From positions 1,488,001-1,552,000 of the forward strand of contig NC_012586.1 of assembly GCF_000018545.1 (NCBI RefSeq): a DNA stretch of 64,000 nt, written 5' to 3'. The notes under the pieces are model-generated. The model saw nothing but the letters and a program-made list of their open reading frames with translations, searched no databases and was not told the origin of the DNA. The DNA is from Sinorhizobium fredii NGR234. Its GTDB lineage: Bacteria; Pseudomonadota; Alphaproteobacteria; Rhizobiales; Rhizobiaceae. A program made the translations under genes and the position numbers. Shown here piece by piece: positions 24,066-33,626 of the stretch; positions within the stretch are counted from its first letter, which is position 1; each line of letters begins with the position of its first letter.

Positions 24066-24884
24066 TCACTTCCCGGATTTACTTTTCTTCTCGCGCATCA
24101 GCAGGCGCGCTGTCAGGATCAGGAGAAGCGAGGCGACCAGAACCAGGGTCGCGATCGCATTTATCTCCGGCGTCACGCCGCGACGGATCGAGGCGAAGAC
24201 ATAGATCGGCAAGGTGGTCTTCGAGCCCGCGACGAAGAAGGCGATGATGAAATCGTCGAAGGAGAAGGTGAAGGCGAGCAGGAAGCCGGCGAGGATCGAG
24301 GGCAGGATCTGCGGCAGTACGATCAGCCGGAAAGTGGTGAGCGGCGTCGCATAGAGATCACTCGACGCCTCGACGATGTCGCGGCCGAGACTGGCGATTC
24401 GCGCCTTCACGATCATGGCGACGAGCGCCATCGAGAAGAGGCCGTGGGCAGCGATGATCGAGCCGTAGCCAAGCCCGAGCTGTGGCGGGTGATCGCCCGG
24501 CCAGATCGTCGCGAGCGCCGGATTGACGAAGGAGAACACAGCGACAAGGGCGACGAGCGTGGCGATGCCAATGACGACACCCGGAACGACGATCGCCGCG
24601 GCGAACAATGCATCGAAGACCGCCCGCGTGCGGATGCCGAGCCGCTCCATGCCGAGCGCGGCCATGGTCCCGAATACCGCGGCGAGTGCGGCGCTGGTGA
24701 AGGCGATCATCAGGCTGTTCTGCAGCGCGGAGACCAGGAAGGTGTTACCGAGGGCTTTGCCGTACCAGGCGGTCGAGAACCCGGTGAACTCGCTGGCATT
24801 GCGCCCCGCATTGAAGGAGAACAGGACGACCAGAACGATCGGCGCATAGAGAAAGAGATAGACGGCGGAGACGAGAGCGCGCAT
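24066..24884 (-). CDS. ABC transporter permease (PotC-like)
   Basis: The protein has 272 residues with about six transmembrane segments. The EAA loop reads EASSDLYATPLTTFRLIVLPQILPSILAG, which contacts the ATPase. It belongs to the polyamine/spermidine or related (Fe, opine, sulfate-type) permease group. Its ATG overlaps the stop of the upstream PotB-like gene (ATGA). The ATPase and binding-protein genes expected for this transporter are missing, removed or displaced by the IS array to the right. The transporter is therefore probably non-functional at this locus. Confidence 0.9.
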   Translation of the reverse strand: MRALVSAVYLFLYAPIVLVVLFSFNAGRNASEFTGFSTAWYGKALGNTFLVSALQNSLMIAFTSAALAAVFGTMAALGMERLGIRTRAVFDALFAAAIVVPGVVIGIATLVALVAVFSFVNPALATIWPGDHPPQLGLGYGSIIAAHGLFSMALVAMIVKARIASLGRDIVEASSDLYATPLTTFRLIVLPQILPSILAGFLLAFTFSFDDFIIAFFVAGSKTTLPIYVFASIRRGVTPEINAIATLVLVASLLLILTARLLMREKKSKSGK

Positions 24885-25393
24885 CAGACGAGATCCACCT
24901 GTCTTGTTCCGGCGACCTTCCAGGCAATGCGCATCGCGACCATGAGCACAATGACCACAACTGCGACCAGCGTGACGGCGATCGCCGAACCGAAAGGCCA
25001 GTTACGCGACTGTAGGAAAAGATCGACCAGCGCGTTGCCGATGAAGAAGACCTTGCCGCCACCGAGAAGCTGCGGGATCAGATATTCGCCGAGAAGCAAG
25101 ATGGTCACGAGCGCGACACCGGTCATGACGCCCGGGAGCGACAGGGGCAGGGTTACGCCGAAAAAGCTCGAGACCGGCTTCGCCCCAAGATCGGCGGAGG
25201 CCTCCAGAAGACGCCGATCGAGCTTTTCGAGATGCTGGCCTTGTTCAAAGATGAGCCATGAAAGTCGCCGGAGAAAGCGATAGAGCAAACTCGATAGAAG
25301 AAATTTTCTAATCTTCTGCTGCAGCCAACAGTTAGTCAAAAGCATTGAAATTGCTGTGCTGAGCGCCATTAGCGTACCGCTTGATAAGCGGGT
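24884..25393 (-). pseudogene. PotB-like permease, 5' half lost at IS junction
   Basis: Similarity to PotB-type permeases begins near 25235 with EKLDRRLLEASADLGAKP (EAA loop) and runs through LGEYLIPQLLGGG to the C-terminal MRIAWKVAG helix. The N-terminal two-thirds is absent. About 150 bp of AT-richer unidentified sequence (25245-25393) joins it in frame to the first 60 or so codons of an ISNCY transposase starting at 25591, giving a chimeric 235-residue ORF. The chimera is an accident of rearrangement and is unlikely to work as a permease. Confidence 0.82.
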
Positions 25394-25731
25394 GCTCGGA
25401 CGGCCGCGCTTCTTCGAGACGAGACCGTCGGCGCCGGCCAGGTCATTGGCTTGCAACAGCCGGTGGACCTGACTGCGGCTGAGACGAAGCAACGCGGCCG
25501 CCTCGACGACGGTCAGGCTGCGCCCGCGAATCCGCTGGATGAGTTCAAGACGATGCAATTCCTTCTGCGACATGGTGATCAAACAAGACATGACGACTCC
25601 GAACGCTCATGGTCTCAGCCACGCTTCACGTCGCCAGTCTTCCTTCCAAACGTTGACGTTTGACCAGCATCCCAAGAGGCGACGACTGTCGCATCTCTAA
25701 CTGGCTCATATGTCGCATCTCTAAAATGCCG

Positions 25732-26846
25732 TGGAGAATCTAATCCAAGTGCAACAATGACGAGTAGAGGGTAGGGCATTACCCGCAATCGCGCAAATGC
25801 GCCATGAACACCTCGGCGGGTGTCCGATAGCCAAGGCACTTCCTGGGCAGCGAGTTCAGGTGATGGGCGAGGGTGACGAGCTTCTGCTGGCTGACGGCGG
25901 ATAGGTCCGTATCGCTCGGCACAAAGCGGCGGATGCGCTTGTTGGTGTTCTCGATCGCACCTTTCTGCCACGGTGAATTTGGATCGCAGAACCAGCTCCT
26001 GGCGCCGAGTCCATCTTCCAAAGCCCTGAAACCGCGAAACTCGGTGCCACGGTCGAAGGTGAAGCTCTGACGGGCAATGGCCGGCAAGGGAGAGAAGGCA
26101 TCGACGATCTTGCCGATGAGCGGCTGCGAGTGGCGGCTACCATTCTTGATCATCACCGTGTAGCGGCTCTTGCGCTCGACCAGCGAGGTGACATTGGCTT
26201 CACCGAGGTCGCGCCGGAAGATCAAGAGATCGCCCTCCCAGTGGCCGAACTGCGAGCGATCGGCAATGAAATCAGGCCGTTGGCCGATCCTGTAGTCAAA
26301 CGCAATCAAGCCGTCGCGGGGCTTGCGGGAGCCGCGGCGACGGCGCTTGCGACGGCCTTCCGGCAGGTGACGATAGAGCTGCAGCGGATAATCTTCCTTG
26401 CCATAGATAAAGCGATAGATCGTCTCGGTGCAGACGCGGACGGCGCTCACACCATCGGCCAGCAGACGGCCGGCGATCTGCTCCGGCGACCAAAGTGCCT
26501 CCAGTCGATCGATAACCAGCTGGCGCAGCTGCGGGTGGCGGCTGAGCTTGCGCAGCCGTCGCCGGCGCTCCTTGGAGATGTCGTTGGCAATGCCGCTGTA
26601 GTAGCCGCTGTATTCCGGAAACTCGGCATCATGGAAGGTGTTGCGCTTCAGTTCACGATAGATCGTCGAGCGATGCCGGCCGAGCTGCCGGGCGATCTCA
26701 CCGACAGGAACCTTGCGTTCCACGAGCTGGTGCAAACGGCGGCGATCGGGAAGGGTGAGCTGTGAATAGCACTGCGACATGCAAAAATCTCCAAGGGCCA
26801 AGCCATTGTTTTTATTGCCATGTCGCACTTGGAATTAGAATGTACC
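25732..26846 (-). mobile_element. IS30-family insertion sequence, 1115 bp with CCG target duplication
   Basis: The left end is TGGAGAATCTAATCCAAGTG and the complement of the right end is GGGTACATTCTAATTCCAAG; they match over the CTAAT(T)CCAAGTGC core. CCG at 25729-25731 and at 26847-26849 is the 3-bp duplication. Removing the element restores the ISNCY right end AAAATGCCGTTACA exactly as in unit 1. Confidence 0.9.
25779..26780 (-). CDS. IS30-family transposase
   Basis: The product has 333 residues from the ATG at 26780, which has TTGGAG about 8 bases upstream; a longer frame opens at 26828. The N-terminal part has the IS30 helix-turn-helix (LTLPDRRRLHQLVERKVPVGEIARQLGRHRSTIYRELKRN). The DDE core includes GHWEGDLLIF with the first Asp, FDRGTEFRG with the second, and the final Glu in QKGAIENTNKRIRRFVP. 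It appears intact. Confidence 0.95.
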   Translation of the reverse strand: MSQCYSQLTLPDRRRLHQLVERKVPVGEIARQLGRHRSTIYRELKRNTFHDAEFPEYSGYYSGIANDISKERRRRLRKLSRHPQLRQLVIDRLEALWSPEQIAGRLLADGVSAVRVCTETIYRFIYGKEDYPLQLYRHLPEGRRKRRRRGSRKPRDGLIAFDYRIGQRPDFIADRSQFGHWEGDLLIFRRDLGEANVTSLVERKSRYTVMIKNGSRHSQPLIGKIVDAFSPLPAIARQSFTFDRGTEFRGFRALEDGLGARSWFCDPNSPWQKGAIENTNKRIRRFVPSDTDLSAVSQQKLVTLAHHLNSLPRKCLGYRTPAEVFMAHLRDCG

Positions 26847-27061
26847 CCGTTACATGGTGTGTCACAGCTATTTAAAGATGAGACAAAGTAATCAACTTAG
26901 AAACGCGACATCATCCTATTCATTATTACTGCGTTTGCAAGTATATTTACAAAGTACGAAGACGCGAGCCGCCGACCGGGTGGAGCTGGTCAGGGTTGCG
27001 CAGCCCGGTCGGCGGCGGATGGCTCCAGCTGCAAAATAAACTTCAGCTTGGACACCCCCGG

Positions 27062-27739
27062 TCACTCCGCCGCTTTCAGCTGCGCAAGGGCTTGTTGCCG
27101 CTTTGCGATGACCACCGGATCCTTGGTAAAATCCGTCTTCCGGCCAGGCTTCGTGCCGCGCTTTTGGTAGCCATTGCTCTGGCTGCCGTCGCGAATGCCG
27201 AACATATGATCCGTCTGGCCGGTGCGGCGCGGTCCGCCCTTGCTGCGCTGTTGCTCGCGTCCGGCCTGCATCTCGGCCACCAGCGCCAGCACGTCATCAA
27301 GGCGCTTGTTCTCAACCACCTCAGGGCGGTGCACCGAGCGCAACGTGTCGAAGGTTCTGTAGGGCAGGGACGTCCCCTCATGGGTGACCTCGAGGCGACC
27401 ATCGGGATAGTCGCAGACAATGACCTTCTTGCCGGCGAGCGCCGTGGCGAGGTCGGTCGGATCGAGGATGAACATCACCTTGTCATAGCGCAGCGTCAGC
27501 GACTGCGACAGCTTGCGGATCTCCTTGCGGCACATGGCGCCATCGAGGTTCTCATGCGCGGCAAACGGCCGATGCATGTCCTTCGGATTGCGCGGCGCCT
27601 TGCCGAAGCGACGATTGAAGTCGGCCATGAACTCCGGCGCATAGGCATTGGCCGCCGCGATCGTGTCGATGCCGCGCAGCCGCAGTTCCTTGACAAGCCG
27701 ATCCTGCAGCGTCTGGTTTGCACGCTCGACGCGGCCTTT
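27062..27739 (-). pseudogene. ISNCY transposase, C-terminal fragment
   Basis: Starting at the insertion junction, the frame reads GRVERANQTLQDRL (with the catalytic Glu), then the FMADFNRRFGKAPRNPKDMHRP block, the PDGRLEVTHEGTSLPY segment and the basic C-terminus KPGRKTDFTKDP. It aligns with the second half of the intact transposase of unit 2. An ATG at 27628 could start a shorter product, but it lacks the DDE core. Confidence 0.88.
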
Positions 27740-27777
27740 CTTTCAAGTCCAGGACTGCAGTTCGTACTGACACTCAA

Positions 27778-28047
27778 GTGCGTATAGAGTTCGAGGTCAC
27801 GCACCCGTTCCATCCGTGGCGCGGCCAGCGCTTCGTGTTGTCGACACGCAAGCAGAACTGGGGCGAGGATCGCGTCATGTTCTACGACGCGGATGGGCGG
27901 CTTCGCTCGCTGCTTGCGTCATGGACGGACGTCGCTGCACCCGATGTTTTCATTCAGATCGCGGCCGGTAGGTCGTTCGTGCGTCCAGATGATCTGGCAA
28001 CCCTAGCCGCATTGATCGAGCAAATCGAGCGCAGCCATGGCGGCTGA
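27778..28047 (+). CDS. DUF5372-type small protein of the recombinase element
   Basis: The product has 89 residues from the GTG at 27778 (a TTG at 27718 in flanking IS DNA is also in frame). It reads VRIEFEVTHPFHPWRGQRF, then QNWGEDRVMFYDADGRLRS, then a DVFIQIAAGRSFVRPDDLA block. This matches the small proteins usually annotated DUF5372 that travel with HTH and recombinase genes in rhizobial elements. Its function is unknown. It is the first gene inside the element and reads away from the left junction. Confidence 0.75.
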   Translation: MRIEFEVTHPFHPWRGQRFVLSTRKQNWGEDRVMFYDADGRLRSLLASWTDVAAPDVFIQIAAGRSFVRPDDLATLAALIEQIERSHGG

Positions 28048-28063
28048 ATGCGTGTCAGGCAAT

Positions 28064-28216
28064 TTATGCCGATTATGTAAATCTAATTATGCCGAATCAT
28101 ACGGGCGCTCACAGCGATAATTGCCTCTACATTGTAGTTATATGCAGCATAAACAGCCATATCGCCCGGCGTCGTTAGGTTGACACGTTCTCTATCGAGG
28201 CGTAATTTGATTTACA
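28064..28216. repeat. Repeat cluster between DUF5372 and HTH genes (candidate recombinase site)
   Basis: TTATGCCGA occurs at 28064-28072 and 28087-28095, 23 bp apart. TGTAAATCTAATTATGCC (28076-28093) has an inverted partner at 28199-28216 matching at 16 of 18 positions. The intervening DNA is AT-rich and non-coding. It may be a recombinase-binding or operator region; this is an inference from position. Confidence 0.5.
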
Positions 28217-28237
28217 CCACTAGGAAGAGGTTATGCC

Positions 28238-28687
28238 ATGCCCAACGAGACCAAACGTGAGCGACTGCGCGAGCTCGGAGCACTCAATGCGCGGCCCGAA
28301 GCCGTCCGTGCACCCTGGTTTCGTGAGTCCACCTTCTTCGATCCTCTCGATCTCGTGCAGGTGAAGTACGAGATGCTGCGTCACGTCCAGGAGGATGGCG
28401 TCAACAAGGCCGATGCCGCCGCGCTTTTCGGTCTGTCGCGGCCAACCTACTATCAGGCCGAGGCCGCGTTCGAACGCGACGGCATTGCCGGCCTGCTGCC
28501 GCGCACCCGAGGGCCAAAGTCGGCCCACAAACTCACCGACGAGGTCATGCAGCTCATCGAGCAGAACCAGCATGCGGGCGCCCCGCTGCAGGCGCGCTCC
28601 CTGGCAGAACTGCTGCATTCGACGCTCGGCATCAGTGTCCATCCCCGCAGCATCGAACGCGCGATCGCCCGTAAAAAAAAACGGTGA
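28238..28687 (+). CDS. Helix-turn-helix protein of the recombinase element
   Basis: The protein has 149 residues. A central winged-type HTH of the transposase/Mor-like kind reads DGVNKADAAALFGLSRPTYYQAEAAF, followed by GIAGLLPRTRGPKSAHKLTDEVM and a second small domain ending in SVHPRSIERAIARKKK. It probably binds the element's DNA as a recombination accessory or regulator. A GGAAGAGG ribosome site lies upstream. The gene ends just after a run of nine A (28673-28681), so slippage could extend translation into the next frame. Confidence 0.82.
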   Translation: MPNETKRERLRELGALNARPEAVRAPWFRESTFFDPLDLVQVKYEMLRHVQEDGVNKADAAALFGLSRPTYYQAEAAFERDGIAGLLPRTRGPKSAHKLTDEVMQLIEQNQHAGAPLQARSLAELLHSTLGISVHPRSIERAIARKKKR

Positions 28688-28706
28688 GCCCCATGCACGC
28701 ACCCCG

Positions 28707-28973
28707 GTGCTACCGCGCAGCTGCAAGGATTTCTACGAGACGCTGCGCACCGCCGTCCTTTGCGGTCAGGCCTGCGCCAAGGACATGGGCGCCATCGTTT
28801 TCCACGGCCTTTGGCAAGGGCTGGCGGTGCTGATCGCGCAGCCTCCCCCGCCGACGCATCGGCGGCTGGAATCACGGCCTACGGCTTCGGTCGCAGTGCA
28901 CGATCGCCAGCTCGTGCACATGCTCGCCAACATGGTGCTGGCAGCAGAGACCCGAGGGAACCATGTCTACTGA
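28707..28973 (+). CDS. 88-residue protein of the recombinase element, unknown function
   Basis: A GTG start gives VLPRSCKDFYETLRTAVLCG, then GAIVFHGLWQGLAVLIAQ, and ends LVHMLANMVLAAETRGNHVY. The same reading frame is also open upstream through the A9 run at the end of the HTH gene. Removing one A there would fuse the two proteins. Its stop overlaps the recombinase start (ATGTCTACTGA), indicating coupling. I do not recognise a domain. Confidence 0.6.
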   Translation: MLPRSCKDFYETLRTAVLCGQACAKDMGAIVFHGLWQGLAVLIAQPPPPTHRRLESRPTASVAVHDRQLVHMLANMVLAAETRGNHVY

Positions 28974-31047
28974 CATCGCCATAAAGGTTGACGCCGACCA
29001 TCTGCGGCGTGATGCATTCCTCTACGTGCGTCAGTCCTCGCTTCGTCAGGTGTTCGAGAACACCGAGAGCACCAAGCGGCAATACGCCCTGCGCGATCGC
29101 GCCGTGGCGCTGGGCTGGCCGATCGAACGTGTCCACGTCATCGATAGCGACCTCGGCCTCTCCGGCGCGCAGTCGCAGGACCGCGACGGCTTCCAGCACC
29201 TGGTGAGCGAAGTGGCGATGGGACATGCAGGGATCGTGCTGGGGCTGGAAGTGTCGCGCCTGGCACGCAACAATGCCGACTGGCACCGTCTCCTTGAGCT
29301 GGCCGCCTTGTCGCGCACGCTCATCATGGACGAGGACGGCGTCTATGATCCGGCCTATTTCAACGACCGCATGCTGCTCGGCCTGAAGGGCACGATGAGC
29401 GAGGCCGAACTGCACATCCTGAAGTCGCGGCTGCAAGGCGGCATTCTCAACAAGGCGCGCCGCGGCGAACTCGAGATGCCGCTGCCGATCGGGTTGGTCT
29501 ACACCCCTGACGCGCGGGTCGTGCTCGATCCCGACCGACAGATCCAGGACACGGTGCGGCTCCTGTTCGATACTTTCCGCCAGACCGGCTCGGCCTGCGC
29601 CGTCGTGCGCCGCCTGCGGGGCGAGAAGATCCTCTTTCCGCGGCGTATCCGTCGCGGCATCGGCAAGGGCGACGTCCTGTGGAACGAGATCGACCATTCC
29701 CGCGTGCTCCAGATCTTGCACAACCCGCGCTATGCCGGCGCCTTCGCCTATGGACGCACGCGCACCGCCTACAATGCCAAGCTGAAGCCCGTGCAACTGC
29801 GCGTGGCGAGATCCGACTGGCAGGTACTGATTCCCGACGCCCACGACGGCTACATTTCCTGGGCCGAATACGAACGCAATCAGGCAGCCCTGGAACAGAA
29901 CGCCACCGGTTTTTCACCCGGCCTGCGTGGACGCATGCCCCGCCAGGGCAGCGGCCTGTTGCAGGGACGGCTGCTGTGCGGCCGCTGCGGTGCACGCATG
30001 CGGGTCCATTACGAGCCGTTCGAGGGGCGGCTGCGCCCATATTACGTCTGCAACGAAGCCGTCGTGCGACACGCCGGCAAACACTGCCAATGGGTGCGCG
30101 GTGCTCCGGTCGACGAGGCGGTGAGCGCGCTACTGCTGGAGGTAATGGCGCCGGCAGCGATCGATGTCGCGCTTGCCGTGCAGCAGGAGATCACCCAGCG
30201 CGTGGAGCAGGCCGCGGCGCTGCGCGGCACGCAGCTGCAACGCGCCCGCTATGAGGCTGAACTGGCCCGCCGGCGCTACCTGAAGGTCGATCCGGACAAC
30301 CGCCTGGTCGCCGACGCGCTGGAAGCCGACTGGAACGCACGGCTGCGCGACCTCGACGCACTCCAGCGCGAGCACGAGCGCCAGAACGAGGCCGACCACT
30401 CGCTGCTGGACGAGCCAGCGCAGCAGCGCATCAGGGCGCTGACCGCCGATTTCCCGCGCATCTGGAACGACGAGCGCACCGGTGCCGTCGAACGCAAGCG
30501 CATGCTCGGCCTTCTCATCGAAGACGTGACGCTGCTCGTCGACGATGAGGTCAACATCAACATCCGTTGGCGCGGCGGGCGCACGCAGAGCCTGTCGGTG
30601 GCCAGACCTCGGCCTATGTCGGTGATACGCAAGACGCCGGCACAGGTCGTGGCGTTGATCAACGAGCTGCTGGAGGCCACCAACGACCGGCAGATCGCCG
30701 CTCGTCTCAACGAACTCGGGCATCGCAACTGGCGCGGCGAACCCTTCACGCCGAAGAAGGTCATGCTCGTGCGCCGCACCTATGGTTTGAAGAGCCGGTA
30801 CGAACGGCTGCGCGAGGGCGGCATGCTCACCGGCGAGGAAGTAGCCCAGCAGCTCGGCGTATGCGAATCGACCGTTCACCAACTCGGGCGCAAAGGCACT
30901 CTCAAGCGTCATCGATACGCCAGCAACCATCGATACTTGTACGAACCGCCGGGCAACGTCAGACTCGAAAAAGGCGCCGGCAGTCGATATGGTGGCCGTC
31001 AACCCAGATTAATTGTCGCTCAACCACTCCAACAAGGTGCATCGTGA
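28963..31047 (+). CDS. Large serine recombinase
   Basis: The protein has 694 residues. The N-terminal resolvase domain has the catalytic serine in LYVRQSSLRQV near residue 25, with the conserved LEVSRLARNNADWHRLL block and the EAELHILKSRL helix. The recombinase domain follows (FPRRIR..., then NPRYAGAFAYGRT). A zinc ribbon is visible as LLCGRCGARMRVHYE...YYVCN. A coiled-coil/C-terminal region and an HTH-like tail (GEEVAQQLGVCESTVHQLGRKG) complete it. It should catalyse integration and excision of the 3.3-kb element. It ends within 10 bp of the right junction. Confidence 0.95.
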   Translation: MSTDIAIKVDADHLRRDAFLYVRQSSLRQVFENTESTKRQYALRDRAVALGWPIERVHVIDSDLGLSGAQSQDRDGFQHLVSEVAMGHAGIVLGLEVSRLARNNADWHRLLELAALSRTLIMDEDGVYDPAYFNDRMLLGLKGTMSEAELHILKSRLQGGILNKARRGELEMPLPIGLVYTPDARVVLDPDRQIQDTVRLLFDTFRQTGSACAVVRRLRGEKILFPRRIRRGIGKGDVLWNEIDHSRVLQILHNPRYAGAFAYGRTRTAYNAKLKPVQLRVARSDWQVLIPDAHDGYISWAEYERNQAALEQNATGFSPGLRGRMPRQGSGLLQGRLLCGRCGARMRVHYEPFEGRLRPYYVCNEAVVRHAGKHCQWVRGAPVDEAVSALLLEVMAPAAIDVALAVQQEITQRVEQAAALRGTQLQRARYEAELARRRYLKVDPDNRLVADALEADWNARLRDLDALQREHERQNEADHSLLDEPAQQRIRALTADFPRIWNDERTGAVERKRMLGLLIEDVTLLVDDEVNINIRWRGGRTQSLSVARPRPMSVIRKTPAQVVALINELLEATNDRQIAARLNELGHRNWRGEPFTPKKVMLVRRTYGLKSRYERLREGGMLTGEEVAQQLGVCESTVHQLGRKGTLKRHRYASNHRYLYEPPGNVRLEKGAGSRYGGRQPRLIVAQPLQQGAS

Positions 31048-31055
31048 TGTCCGCT

Positions 31056-31791
31056 CCTTTGCCTGCGGGGTATTGGCGCAGATGATGTCGATGTTGAGCT
31101 CATAAAGAGCCCGCCCGAACTGCGTCAGGCCGCTGGTTCTGTCCTTCTTGGAAGCATGGGTGGTGCGGAAGATGCCATGCTTGTCGCTGTAGAAGGCGAT
31201 CGGCTTGCCCCATTGCTGCAAGTAGGCCTTCGTCGCGTGCAGATAGTCGAAGGTGTTCTCCGATCCGGCAAACCGCAGATGCAAGAGCTTGCCGGTGGCA
31301 TCGTCGATATAGACGAGCAGGGCGCATTTGGGACCGCGGTTCTCGAACCACCAATGCAGCGAGCCATCGATCTGCACGAGTTCGCCGAAACAATCGCGCC
31401 GGCCGCGCGGCTGGAAGACCCGCTTCTTGCGCTCGCGTCGCGACACCCAGAGGCCGGCTTCCATCATCCACTGCCGCAGCGTCTCCTTGCTGACGGCAAT
31501 CCGGTGGCGTTCGATGAGCTTCTCGGCCGCCAAGGTCGGTCCGAAATCCGCATAATGCTCCCGCACCAGGTCGAGCACCAGGTTGCGGAAATCCTCGCTG
31601 TGACGCCGGTTGCTCGGACGGCCGCGCTTCTTCGAGACGAGACCGTCGGCGCCGGCCTTGTCATAGGCCTGCAACAGCCGGTGCACCTGACTGCGGCTGA
31701 GACGAAGCAACGCGGCCGCCTCGACGACGGTCAGGCTGCGGCCGCGAATCCGCTGGATCAGTTCAAGACGATGCAATTCCTTCTGCGACAT
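31056..31791 (-). pseudogene. ISNCY transposase, N-terminal fragment
   Basis: The fragment starts at MSQKELHRLELI (31791; an upstream ATG at 31809 is in frame). It contains the HTH (TVVEAAALLRLSRSQVHRLLQAY) and the first two catalytic Asp residues (GELVQIDGS, FYSDKHGIF). It breaks after NTPQAK, just before the third catalytic residue, where it reads into the recombinase element. The other half is at 27062-27739. Joined, they would give about 470 residues, as in unit 2. Confidence 0.88.
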
Positions 31792-31959
31792 GGTGATCAA
31801 ACAAGACATGACGACTCCGAACGCTCATGGTCTCAACCACGCTTCACGTCGCCAGTCTTCCTTCCAAACGTTGACGTTTGACCAGCATCCCAAGAGGCGA
31901 CGACTGTCGCATCTCTAACTGGCTCATATGTCGCATCTCTAAAATGCCGTTACATGGTG

Positions 31960-33626
31960 TGTGGCGGCAAGGTTGCAATGTCCGCCATTGCGCAAAGTTA
32001 AAATGTCACTTTGGATACGTCTTCAGCCATTTAGAAATACGACACTCGGCATGTCCACTTGCGCTGAGGCAAGCCCCCGACCGGACCGGCTGGGCCGGGT
32101 TGCAAGGGAAGGGAGGGGGCGGGTGAGACGCACCTATCGGCTTTAGCTTTGAGACTATGAATGCAGCCGATTATTCCGCCGCATCAAGGTGGGAAAGCGC
32201 CTGCTGCCGCCGGGCGATGACTGCGGGATCGTTCATGAAATCCGTCCGCTTACCCGGCTTTCGCCCCCGCGGCTTGTAGCCTATCTTCTCGCTGTTGGTC
32301 TTCACCGCCGGCTTCGTCTGCTGCTCCTGACGTTCCTTGATGTAGGCCAGGACATCACCGAGCCGCTTGTTCTCGGTGATCGCCGCATGCGTCACCCGCT
32401 GGTTTTTGTCGAACACCTGGTAGGGCAGGGAATGCCCCTTCCAGCGCACATCCAGCCGGCCGTCCGCATAGGCATAGGTCTCGACATAGCGACCGACCAG
32501 CCCGCGCGTCACCTCGGTCTCCTCCAGCATGATCCGCTGGCGCTCGTAGGAGAACGTCAGTTGCGTGCCGACATAACGCTGCTCACGTTTGCACAGGACG
32601 TCGCGCAGCCGATCCGGGGCAAGGTTCAGCGGCCGATGCAGATCATCAGATCGGGCAGGGGTAATGGCAAACTGCCGGTTATAGCGCTCCATGAACCGAG
32701 GCAGGAAAGCGTTGCCGTCGTCCATGCCGCAGATGCCCTCCAGGCGCAGATCCTTGATCAACCGATCCTGTAGCGTCCGGTTCATCCGCTCGACACGGCC
32801 CTTCGCCTGGCTTGAGTTTGCGCAAAGAATCTCGATGTTTAGCTCTGAAAGCGCGCGGCCGAACTGGGTCATGCCGTGGCCGCCCTTGGCATCCTTCTTC
32901 GCCACCCGGAACACCGAATGCTTGTCGGAATAGAAGGCGACCGGAGCACCATGCGCCTTCAGATAGAGTTCCAGTGCCTCGAAATACGTGAACGCACTTT
33001 CCGATCGTACGAACCGCAGCTGCATCAGCTTGCCGGTCGCATCGTCGATGAACACCAGCAGCGAACATGGCGGCCCGCGATCCTCAAACCAACGATGCTC
33101 GGATCCGTCGATCTGCACCAGTTCGCCATAGGCCTCGCGCCGCAACCGCGGCTGATGAAAGGTCCGCCGCTGCTTGCGCGACAGCCACAGGCCGGCCTCC
33201 GACATCCATTGGCGCAAGGTCTCGCGCGACACCGTCAGGCCGTCGCGCTCGGCGAGCTTCTCAGCGGCTAATGTCGGTCCGAAGTCCACATAGCACTCGC
33301 GTACGAGCGTCACGGCATAATCGCGCACGCCGTCACAAATCCGATTGTTCGATGGCCGGCCGATCGCCTTGTGCCGGATCGACGCCGCACCGCCAGCGCT
33401 GATCCGATCCAACAGACGACGCACCTGGCGGGTACTCAGGTCCAGCACATGTGCCGCCGACACCAACGTCATACGCCCGGCGATCACCTTCGACAAAATC
33501 TCGATCCGCTGCAGGTCGCGCTCGCTCATCGCAATCATCCCATCCGCAATCTCCCAGGTCATCAAAACCCGGGGAGAGTGACATTCCAACTTTGCAGGAA
33601 CAGGACACTTTAACTTTGCGGCTACA
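31960..33626 (-). mobile_element. ISNCY-type element (unit 2), 1667 bp, intact
   Basis: The left end TGTGGCGGCAAGGTTGCAAT and the complement of the right end TGTAGCCGCAAAGTTAAAGT are imperfect terminal repeats. TGGTG flanks it at 31955-31959 and 33627-33631. The same 5 bp also separates it from unit 1, so the units abut with a single shared TGGTG. Confidence 0.92.
32171..33529 (-). CDS. ISNCY-family transposase (intact)
   Basis: The product has 452 residues from the ATG at 33529 (a longer frame opens at 33589). It has an HTH (TLVSAAHVLDLSTRQVRRLLDRI) and a DDE core: GELVQIDGSEHRWFE, FYSDKHSVFR and QAKGRVERMNRTLQD supply Asp, Asp and Glu. The basic C-terminus reads RGRKPGKRTDFMNDP. It is related to, but clearly divergent from, the transposase of units 0 and 1. 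No frame defects are seen. Confidence 0.93.
   Translation of the reverse strand: MSERDLQRIEILSKVIAGRMTLVSAAHVLDLSTRQVRRLLDRISAGGAASIRHKAIGRPSNNRICDGVRDYAVTLVRECYVDFGPTLAAEKLAERDGLTVSRETLRQWMSEAGLWLSRKQRRTFHQPRLRREAYGELVQIDGSEHRWFEDRGPPCSLLVFIDDATGKLMQLRFVRSESAFTYFEALELYLKAHGAPVAFYSDKHSVFRVAKKDAKGGHGMTQFGRALSELNIEILCANSSQAKGRVERMNRTLQDRLIKDLRLEGICGMDDGNAFLPRFMERYNRQFAITPARSDDLHRPLNLAPDRLRDVLCKREQRYVGTQLTFSYERQRIMLEETEVTRGLVGRYVETYAYADGRLDVRWKGHSLPYQVFDKNQRVTHAAITENKRLGDVLAYIKERQEQQTKPAVKTNSEKIGYKPRGRKPGKRTDFMNDPAVIARRQQALSHLDAAE

What the first reader, a model, noticed from the sequence alone, without database searches (positions are those of the whole stretch)
27735..31060. Compact serine-recombinase element inside a transposase gene, just before its catalytic Glu
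The transposase reading breaks after NTPQAK and resumes at GRVERAN, where the third DDE residue lies. The 3.3-kb insert carries DUF5372-like, HTH, 88-residue and recombinase genes, with CCTTT at both junctions and no terminal repeats. It may be a family of site-specific elements targeting conserved transposase codons.
Basis: partly seen in the sequence, partly recalled or inferred. Interest (0 to 1): 0.75.

Follow-up and report, generated by a model that had tools for sequence, protein, structure and literature searches.

The report
Mobile element that hunts transposase genes
A small mobile DNA element carrying a serine recombinase inserts itself into the transposase genes of other jumping elements, usually four codons before the catalytic glutamate, and relatives in many bacterial phyla do the same at this or other conserved spots.

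Summary
A 3,320-bp element (DUF5372, HTH, 88-aa and large serine recombinase genes) splits an ISNCY transposase at the Lys codon four before the DDE glutamate. The genome holds ten full-length copies, nine identical. All ten left arms read K-x-x-x-E, in ISNCY or IS21-type transposases; nine rejoin in frame.

In 80 further loci of at least 51% identity plus this copy, Glu lies four codons from the core in 55 of 58 readable left junctions, against 3.5% expected. Of 51 right arms, 46 are IS21, IS3, IS481-like, ISNCY or IS66 transposases; five are not. The ends fit a near-symmetric attP with a TT core, and ungapped empty sites exist in relatives.

More distant relatives (34-50%) split mobile-element genes at other conserved codons: IS66 TnpC, IS66 TnpB, IS3, IS110, IS91, tyrosine recombinase.

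From recall, this is NGRIS-4 (Perret 1997), already reported to lie only inside other ISs. The catalytic-codon rule, its breadth and its retargeting were not found in the papers searched. Recombination itself is untested.

The parts
27738..31059 (+). whole element with both copies of the TT core (3,320 bp counting one core)
   Evidence: identical limits in copies sitting in different flanks: left identity begins at 27738, right identity ends at 31059
27738..27761 (+). left end (TT core plus CTTTCAAGTCCAGGACTGCAGT), half of the inferred attP
   Evidence: left-end matrix, score 19.5
31036..31059 (+). right end (GGTGCATCGTGATGTCCGCTCC plus TT core), other half of the inferred attP
   Evidence: right-end matrix, score 26.4
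27778..28047 (+). DUF5372 gene (89 aa from a GTG; the start codon is my choice)
   Evidence: PF17342; tblastn match in 71 of 73 class-1 loci with at least 1,150 nt upstream
28238..28687 (+). 149-aa HTH protein like the N-terminus of IS630/IS481 transposases
   Evidence: HTH_28 and NF033545 matches; found in 72 of 73 loci
28707..28973 (+). 88-aa ORF overlapping the recombinase start
   Evidence: no family in Pfam, NCBIfam or PHROGs; tblastn match in 36 of 73 loci
28963..31047 (+). 694-aa large serine recombinase
   Evidence: Resolvase, Recombinase and Zn_ribbon_recom domains; phrog_95 integrase E 3.8e-54
31060..31809 (-). N-terminal part of the split ISNCY transposase, up to ...ANTPQA
   Evidence: NF033594 profile positions 2-235
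27062..27736 (-). C-terminal part of the split ISNCY transposase, from GRVERANQ
   Evidence: frame continues exactly across the core
26860..31954 (.). host IS with the element inside; the same unit lies at a second place (L009) with another 5-bp duplication
   Evidence: identity limits; TGGTG on both sides here and CACGA on both sides in L009, read

Best explanation
It is a site-specific mobile element moved by its own large serine recombinase. The circular form would carry attP (GGTGCA-N16-TT-N16-TGCAc). The recombinase crosses it over at the 2-bp TT core with a degenerate attB lying across the codons K/N-[GA]-x-x-E of DDE transposase genes, the AA of the K/N codon being the core, always in the opposite orientation to the transposase in this clade. 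Insertion splits the transposase four codons before its glutamate. Related lineages have shifted to other conserved codon blocks of transposase and recombinase genes. Shown by sequence: boundaries, core, target codons, breadth, empty sites. Inferred: that the recombinase alone reads the DNA motif, that the element moves as a circle, that excision (perhaps aided by one of the three small proteins as a directionality factor) restores the transposase.
For: Ten copies in one genome, nine identical and one with a 1-bp insertion, lie in host ISs of at least six different sequences that diverge by 3-20% or more, all at the same codon. 55 of 58 left junctions have Glu four codons from the core against a background of 198 of 5,698. 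45 of 51 right arms are transposases by BLAST or HMM and one more by reading. Control: among 70 ORFs lying 1.2-3.5 kb from the junctions, rve matches at most one (it is not among the 25 families shown), against 25 of 51 at the junction. Ends are conserved and near-symmetric about TT. Empty 220-nt sites are matched without gaps in plasmids of relatives. In plasmid record NZ_CP149874 one IS3 gene is split both by this clade's element at NGMSE and by an IS3-YN-clade element about 40 codons on.
Against: Five of 51 scored right arms are not recognisable transposases (L062, L103, L104, L124, L126); L103 and L104 carry the two halves of a citrate synthase. Three of 58 left junctions lack the Glu (L104, L125, L126). 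Some arms do not match each other (L030 in this genome, L092, L103/L104), from later rearrangement or from assembly of repeats. The 58 junctions are not independent. The left-end matrix scored element bases only, but its seed pattern was drawn by eye from loci first found with the Glu geometry. No excised circle, activity or DNA binding was seen.
Confidence: 0.9

Rival explanations
1. Survival bias: the recombinase inserts widely, and only insertions into dispensable IS genes are kept.
For: Most targets are dispensable IS genes; a few are not transposases.
Against: Bias explains the class of gene but not one exact codon in one orientation across different IS families, nor different fixed codons in other clades. 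Nearby ORFs are rarely rve genes.
Confidence: 0.05
2. The copies spread mainly as passengers: one insertion into an IS, then transposition of the IS carrying the element, helped in trans by an intact relative.
For: Window and L009 share the whole IS plus element, identical over 26860-31954, with different 5-bp flanking repeats; L031/L032/L035 and L033/L034 are near-identical IS-plus-element units in different places.
Against: It cannot explain insertion at the same codon in host ISs that differ by 3-20% within this genome while the element is identical, or in different IS families. It probably adds to spread.
Confidence: 0.2
3. A guide RNA made by the element, as in IS110 elements, chooses the target.
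For: A 190-bp gap between the DUF5372 and HTH genes; degenerate targets.
Against: The ends show conserved bases matching some attB bases (C+3, T+5, G+8 after the core and CC before it), as expected for direct binding by a serine recombinase. No RNA family search was run.
Confidence: 0.04

Closest known systems
NGRIS-4 of Rhizobium sp. NGR234 (Perret et al. 1997, J Bacteriol 179:7488)
   Same: Recalled abstract: all nine NGRIS-4 copies lie in other ISs.
   Different: I could not read the paper (not held); only its reference entry was seen. I count ten full-length copies and one broken relative. I do not know whether it noted the catalytic-codon rule; the wide family and the other target motifs are added here.
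Multi-targeting large serine recombinases (Durrant et al. 2022, PMC10083194; passages seen)
   Same: Large serine recombinase, 2-bp core, several target genes per recombinase, conserved attB motif.
   Different: In the 12 of 26 passages shown, transposase genes are not named as the preferred target; the multi-targeting clade there is marked by DUF4368, which Pfam did not report here.
RmInt1 group II intron in ISRm2011-2 of Sinorhizobium meliloti (PMC4238363; passages seen)
   Same: A mobile element living inside an IS transposase gene; proposed there to limit the spread of its host IS.
   Different: A retroelement that splices from RNA and lies in one IS; here a DNA element with a serine recombinase and many IS families as targets.
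IS607-family serine transposases (PMC6188088; passages seen)
   Same: Serine chemistry, no terminal inverted repeats, no target duplication, 2-bp identical core.
   Different: [quoted passage not shown] here a large recombinase, a TT core and a long target motif.
fdxN-element recombinase XisF and SCCmec Ccr recombinases (NCBIfam matches far below cut-off)
   Same: Large serine recombinases; XisF excises an element that interrupts a gene.
   Different: Scores of 65 and 23-29 bits against cut-offs of 375-900; different element contents.

Membership tests
Large serine recombinase elements | Resolvase catalytic domain plus Recombinase and zinc-ribbon domains | tested here: met
Large serine recombinase elements | Short core shared by attP and attB, no other target duplication | tested here: met
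   TT core; empty sites ungapped over 220 nt
Large serine recombinase elements | attP with half-sites around the core, differing from attB | tested here: met
   GGTGCA-N16-TT-N16-TGCAc against attB
Large serine recombinase elements | Directional recombination controlled by a directionality factor | not testable with these tools
   three small genes are candidates only
NGRIS-4 | Same element in the same strain | tested here: inconclusive
NGRIS-4 | All copies inside other ISs | tested here: met
   ten of ten left arms read as transposase; for L030 this rests on reading its left arm only
IS607 family | Small serine transposase with N-terminal HTH and a GG core | tested here: not met
   694 aa, N-terminal resolvase domain, TT core
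Classical IS or transposon | Terminal inverted repeats and a target duplication | tested here: not met
Group II intron inside an IS | Intron RNA and reverse transcriptase | tested here: not met
   no reverse transcriptase among the four genes; RNA structure not searched

The most novel reading that the evidence does not exclude
A superfamily of serine-recombinase elements are hyperparasites of transposable elements. Each lineage reads the DNA of a different conserved, often catalytic, codon block of other mobile elements' transposases or recombinases (DDE glutamate of IS21/IS3/IS481/ISNCY; codons just after the IS66 glutamate; IS3 YN; IS110 PGVG; IS91 just before its HPH motif; LLGH of tyrosine recombinases; IS66 TnpB). 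By splitting the gene exactly and reversibly they act as natural switches or brakes on transposition.
Probability: 0.45. Interest if true: 0.92.

Novelty: new variant of a known kind. Interest (0 to 1): 0.8.

Why it matters
Transposase genes are among the commonest genes in nature, and their catalytic codons are among their most conserved DNA. An element that uses those codons as its landing site always finds targets that do not harm its host, and silences the target IS. It would be a hyperparasite that shapes IS activity. It explains the 1997 observation, as I recall it, of an element found only in other ISs, and yields serine recombinases with degenerate, codon-defined targets whose specificity has changed several times.

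Tried and rejected
Target duplication of CCTTT: rejected, only TT/CCTT is constant over ten copies.

Restriction to ISNCY: rejected.

Empty copies in the same genome: none found. Two joined sites of 87 and 90 nt matched only as halves, six left and six right for the IS21 kinds, three and three for the ISNCY kind.

L024 and L025 set aside: truncated recombinases next to an apparently whole IS630 or IS3 reading frame, so the IS may have entered them.

Structure prediction of the DUF5372 protein: switched off. L195 (Chloroflexota plasmid, beside an annotated ISL3 transposase) was not resolved. No RNA-family search was run.

Literature: ten searches gave no description of catalytic-codon targeting. 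The library holds only CC0, CC BY and CC BY-SA papers, and listings were capped.

Rows dropped before the 55-of-58 count (81 rows: 80 loci plus the window): 4 without the left region, 8 with a left-end score of 12 or less, 11 with under 13 nt of flank. Rows left out of the 51 right arms: those with a right-end score of 10 or less or an open frame under 40 aa, among them L076 and L115.
Full report
What is there. Between the TT at 27738-27739 and the TT at 31058-31059 lies a 3,320-bp element on the + strand, inside an ISNCY transposase gene that runs on the - strand. It carries a DUF5372 gene, a 149-aa HTH gene, an 88-aa ORF and a 694-aa large serine recombinase. The nearest solved sequences are weak matches, among them the SP-beta recombinase YokA.

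Copies in this genome. The recombinase occurs ten times at 100% identity, plus one broken relative in three pieces. Nine elements are identical over 3,320 bp and one has a 1-bp insertion. I fetched all ten with flanks. Left identity always includes TT and right identity always ends at CCTT. In nine copies the two arms read through the core in one frame, K-G-R-V-E in three ISNCY copies and K-A-K-V-E in six IS21-type copies. In the tenth (L030) the left arm reads K-G-K-D-E-R-G-V-G-Y-V-K, IS21-like by reading, while the right arm is not recognisably the same gene. The host ISs fall into at least six sequences (ISNCY A and B, 3-4% apart; three IS21 kinds, 5-20% apart; L030) while the element stays the same, so there were several independent insertions at one codon. 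Window and L009 share the whole IS with the element, flanked by TGGTG and CACGA repeats respectively, so the loaded IS may also move as a unit. No empty copy of these IS kinds was found in the genome. In relatives the empty site is matched without gaps: 15 plasmid records for the IS21 site, 14 of them over at least 80% of it, and 112 for the ISNCY site, 87 of them over at least 80%.

Relatives at 51% identity or more. One scan gave 80 loci; the tool kept the best 80 of 522. By record titles they span Pseudomonadota, Acidobacteriota, Chloroflexota, Planctomycetota, Actinomycetota, Bacteroidota, Myxococcota and others; many are metagenome bins, whose names may be wrong. With a matrix of the element's own left end, 58 junctions including the window were readable, and 55 have Glu four codons from the core. 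The exceptions are L104, L125 and L126. The same geometry holds for 198 of 5,698 TT dinucleotides in the left flanks. The binomial value of 1.6e-76 overstates the case, since targets are related. Of 51 right arms scored, 19 match the IS21 or ISNCY references, 8 more match NCBIfam transposase models, 10, 7 are tied to those by phmmer, one is IS66 and one (L106) is IS3 by reading only. Five are not transposases: L062, L103 (citrate synthase), L104, L124 and L126. The left arm of L104 is the other half of a citrate synthase. Family tallies overlap and are not added up here. Among 70 control ORFs lying 1.2-3.5 kb away, rve is not among the 25 families shown, so at most one matches; other mobile-element families do occur there, for example IstB 2, IS110 2 and Phage_integrase 2.

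The ends. The left consensus is TTcgCgTAaGTCgtCAACTGCAcg and the right consensus GGTGCAGTATGAAGCcTACgCCTT. Joined as in a circle they give GGTGCA-N16-TT-N16-TGCAc, near-symmetric about a 2-bp core, as expected for an attP of a large serine recombinase. On the transposase strand, sites read best as C(-8) G(-3) C(-1) AA N G(+2) [CG](+3) G(+8) GA[AG](+11 to +13). Some positions agree between attP and attB; that the protein reads them is inference.

Gene content. Of 73 loci with at least 1,150 nt upstream, DUF5372 is found in 71, the HTH gene in 72 and the 88-aa ORF in 36.

Plasmid copies. Ten were fetched. Seven have readable left arms, all with Glu at the fourth codon, and nine have readable right arms that look like transposases by reading; L195 was not resolved. 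The broken copy in the own genome (L010) also reads A-K-L-E. In L192 (NZ_CP149874) an IS3 gene is split twice: by this clade's element at NGMSE and, at WIEDYN, by a recombinase gene 94-95% identical to IS3-clade members.

Wider family. Four searches gave 43 distinct places outside this clade after merging repeats. The target could be read in 32: IS66 TnpC in 16 (11 by motif, two by reading, three by HMM); IS3 at W-x-x-Y-N before RPHSxLG in 8 (motif only); IS66 TnpB in 3; tyrosine recombinase at LLGH in 2, IS110 at PGVG in 2 and IS91 before its HPH motif in 1. Eleven were not resolved, including two set aside as truncated. In these lineages the element can lie in either orientation. The element's right end keeps TGCA-N2-ATGA in the IS66 TnpC elements and in L039 (IS66 TnpB); L013 and L038 have a shorter version. 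The upstream gene looks like DUF5372 by eye (YPWHPxxG), although tblastn with the window's copy did not find it.

Tree. In a quick tree of 101 recombinases, 73 rows, including all K/N-x-x-x-E rows, form one side of a branch with support 100. IS66 and IS3 rows lie on the other side, needing 3 and 2 changes, in 1 and 0 of 500 shuffles as low. L013 and L038, which hit IS66 TnpB, fall inside the 73. Long branches and the midpoint root limit this; L103 and L124 bear the K/N-x-x-x-E label although their genes are not recognised transposases.

Mechanism. Best supported: attP x attB recombination by the serine recombinase at TT, the attB being a degenerate DNA motif that overlaps conserved codons. Survival bias cannot fix one codon and one orientation. 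Passenger spread on the host IS is likely in addition.

Known and new. No paper naming DUF5372 or NGRIS-4 is in the library. RmInt1 (passages) is a precedent for a different kind of element living in IS transposase genes.

Noticed in passing
window 32171-33589 (-): A second ISNCY transposase reading frame 1.1 kb away has the same SSQAKGRVER codons, unoccupied.
   Followed up: no
window 24884-25591 (-): An ORF whose first part is the start of the same ISNCY transposase and whose rest reads like an ABC-transporter permease, so an IS end has fused with a host gene (by reading).
   Followed up: no
window 25779-26828 (-): An IS30-like transposase ORF next to the host IS (by reading).
   Followed up: no
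L192 (NZ_CP149874.1, 479860-487289): One IS3 transposase gene split by two elements of different clades at two conserved motifs.
   Followed up: partly
L103 and L104 (Desulfopila MAG): The two halves of a citrate synthase gene lie beside two different copies of the element, as after recombination between copies or a mis-assembly.
   Followed up: partly
L092: Right arm is ISNCY, left arm reads as IS3: arms from different IS families.
   Followed up: no
L195 (NZ_CP128402.1, 172713-181083): A DUF5372 plus recombinase pair beside an annotated ISL3 transposase in a Chloroflexota plasmid; possibly another target family.
   Followed up: no
own genome, IS21-type and ISNCY copies of L028-L035 and L009: Every copy found of these IS kinds carries the element; no intact copy was found with the two joined-site queries.
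   Followed up: partly
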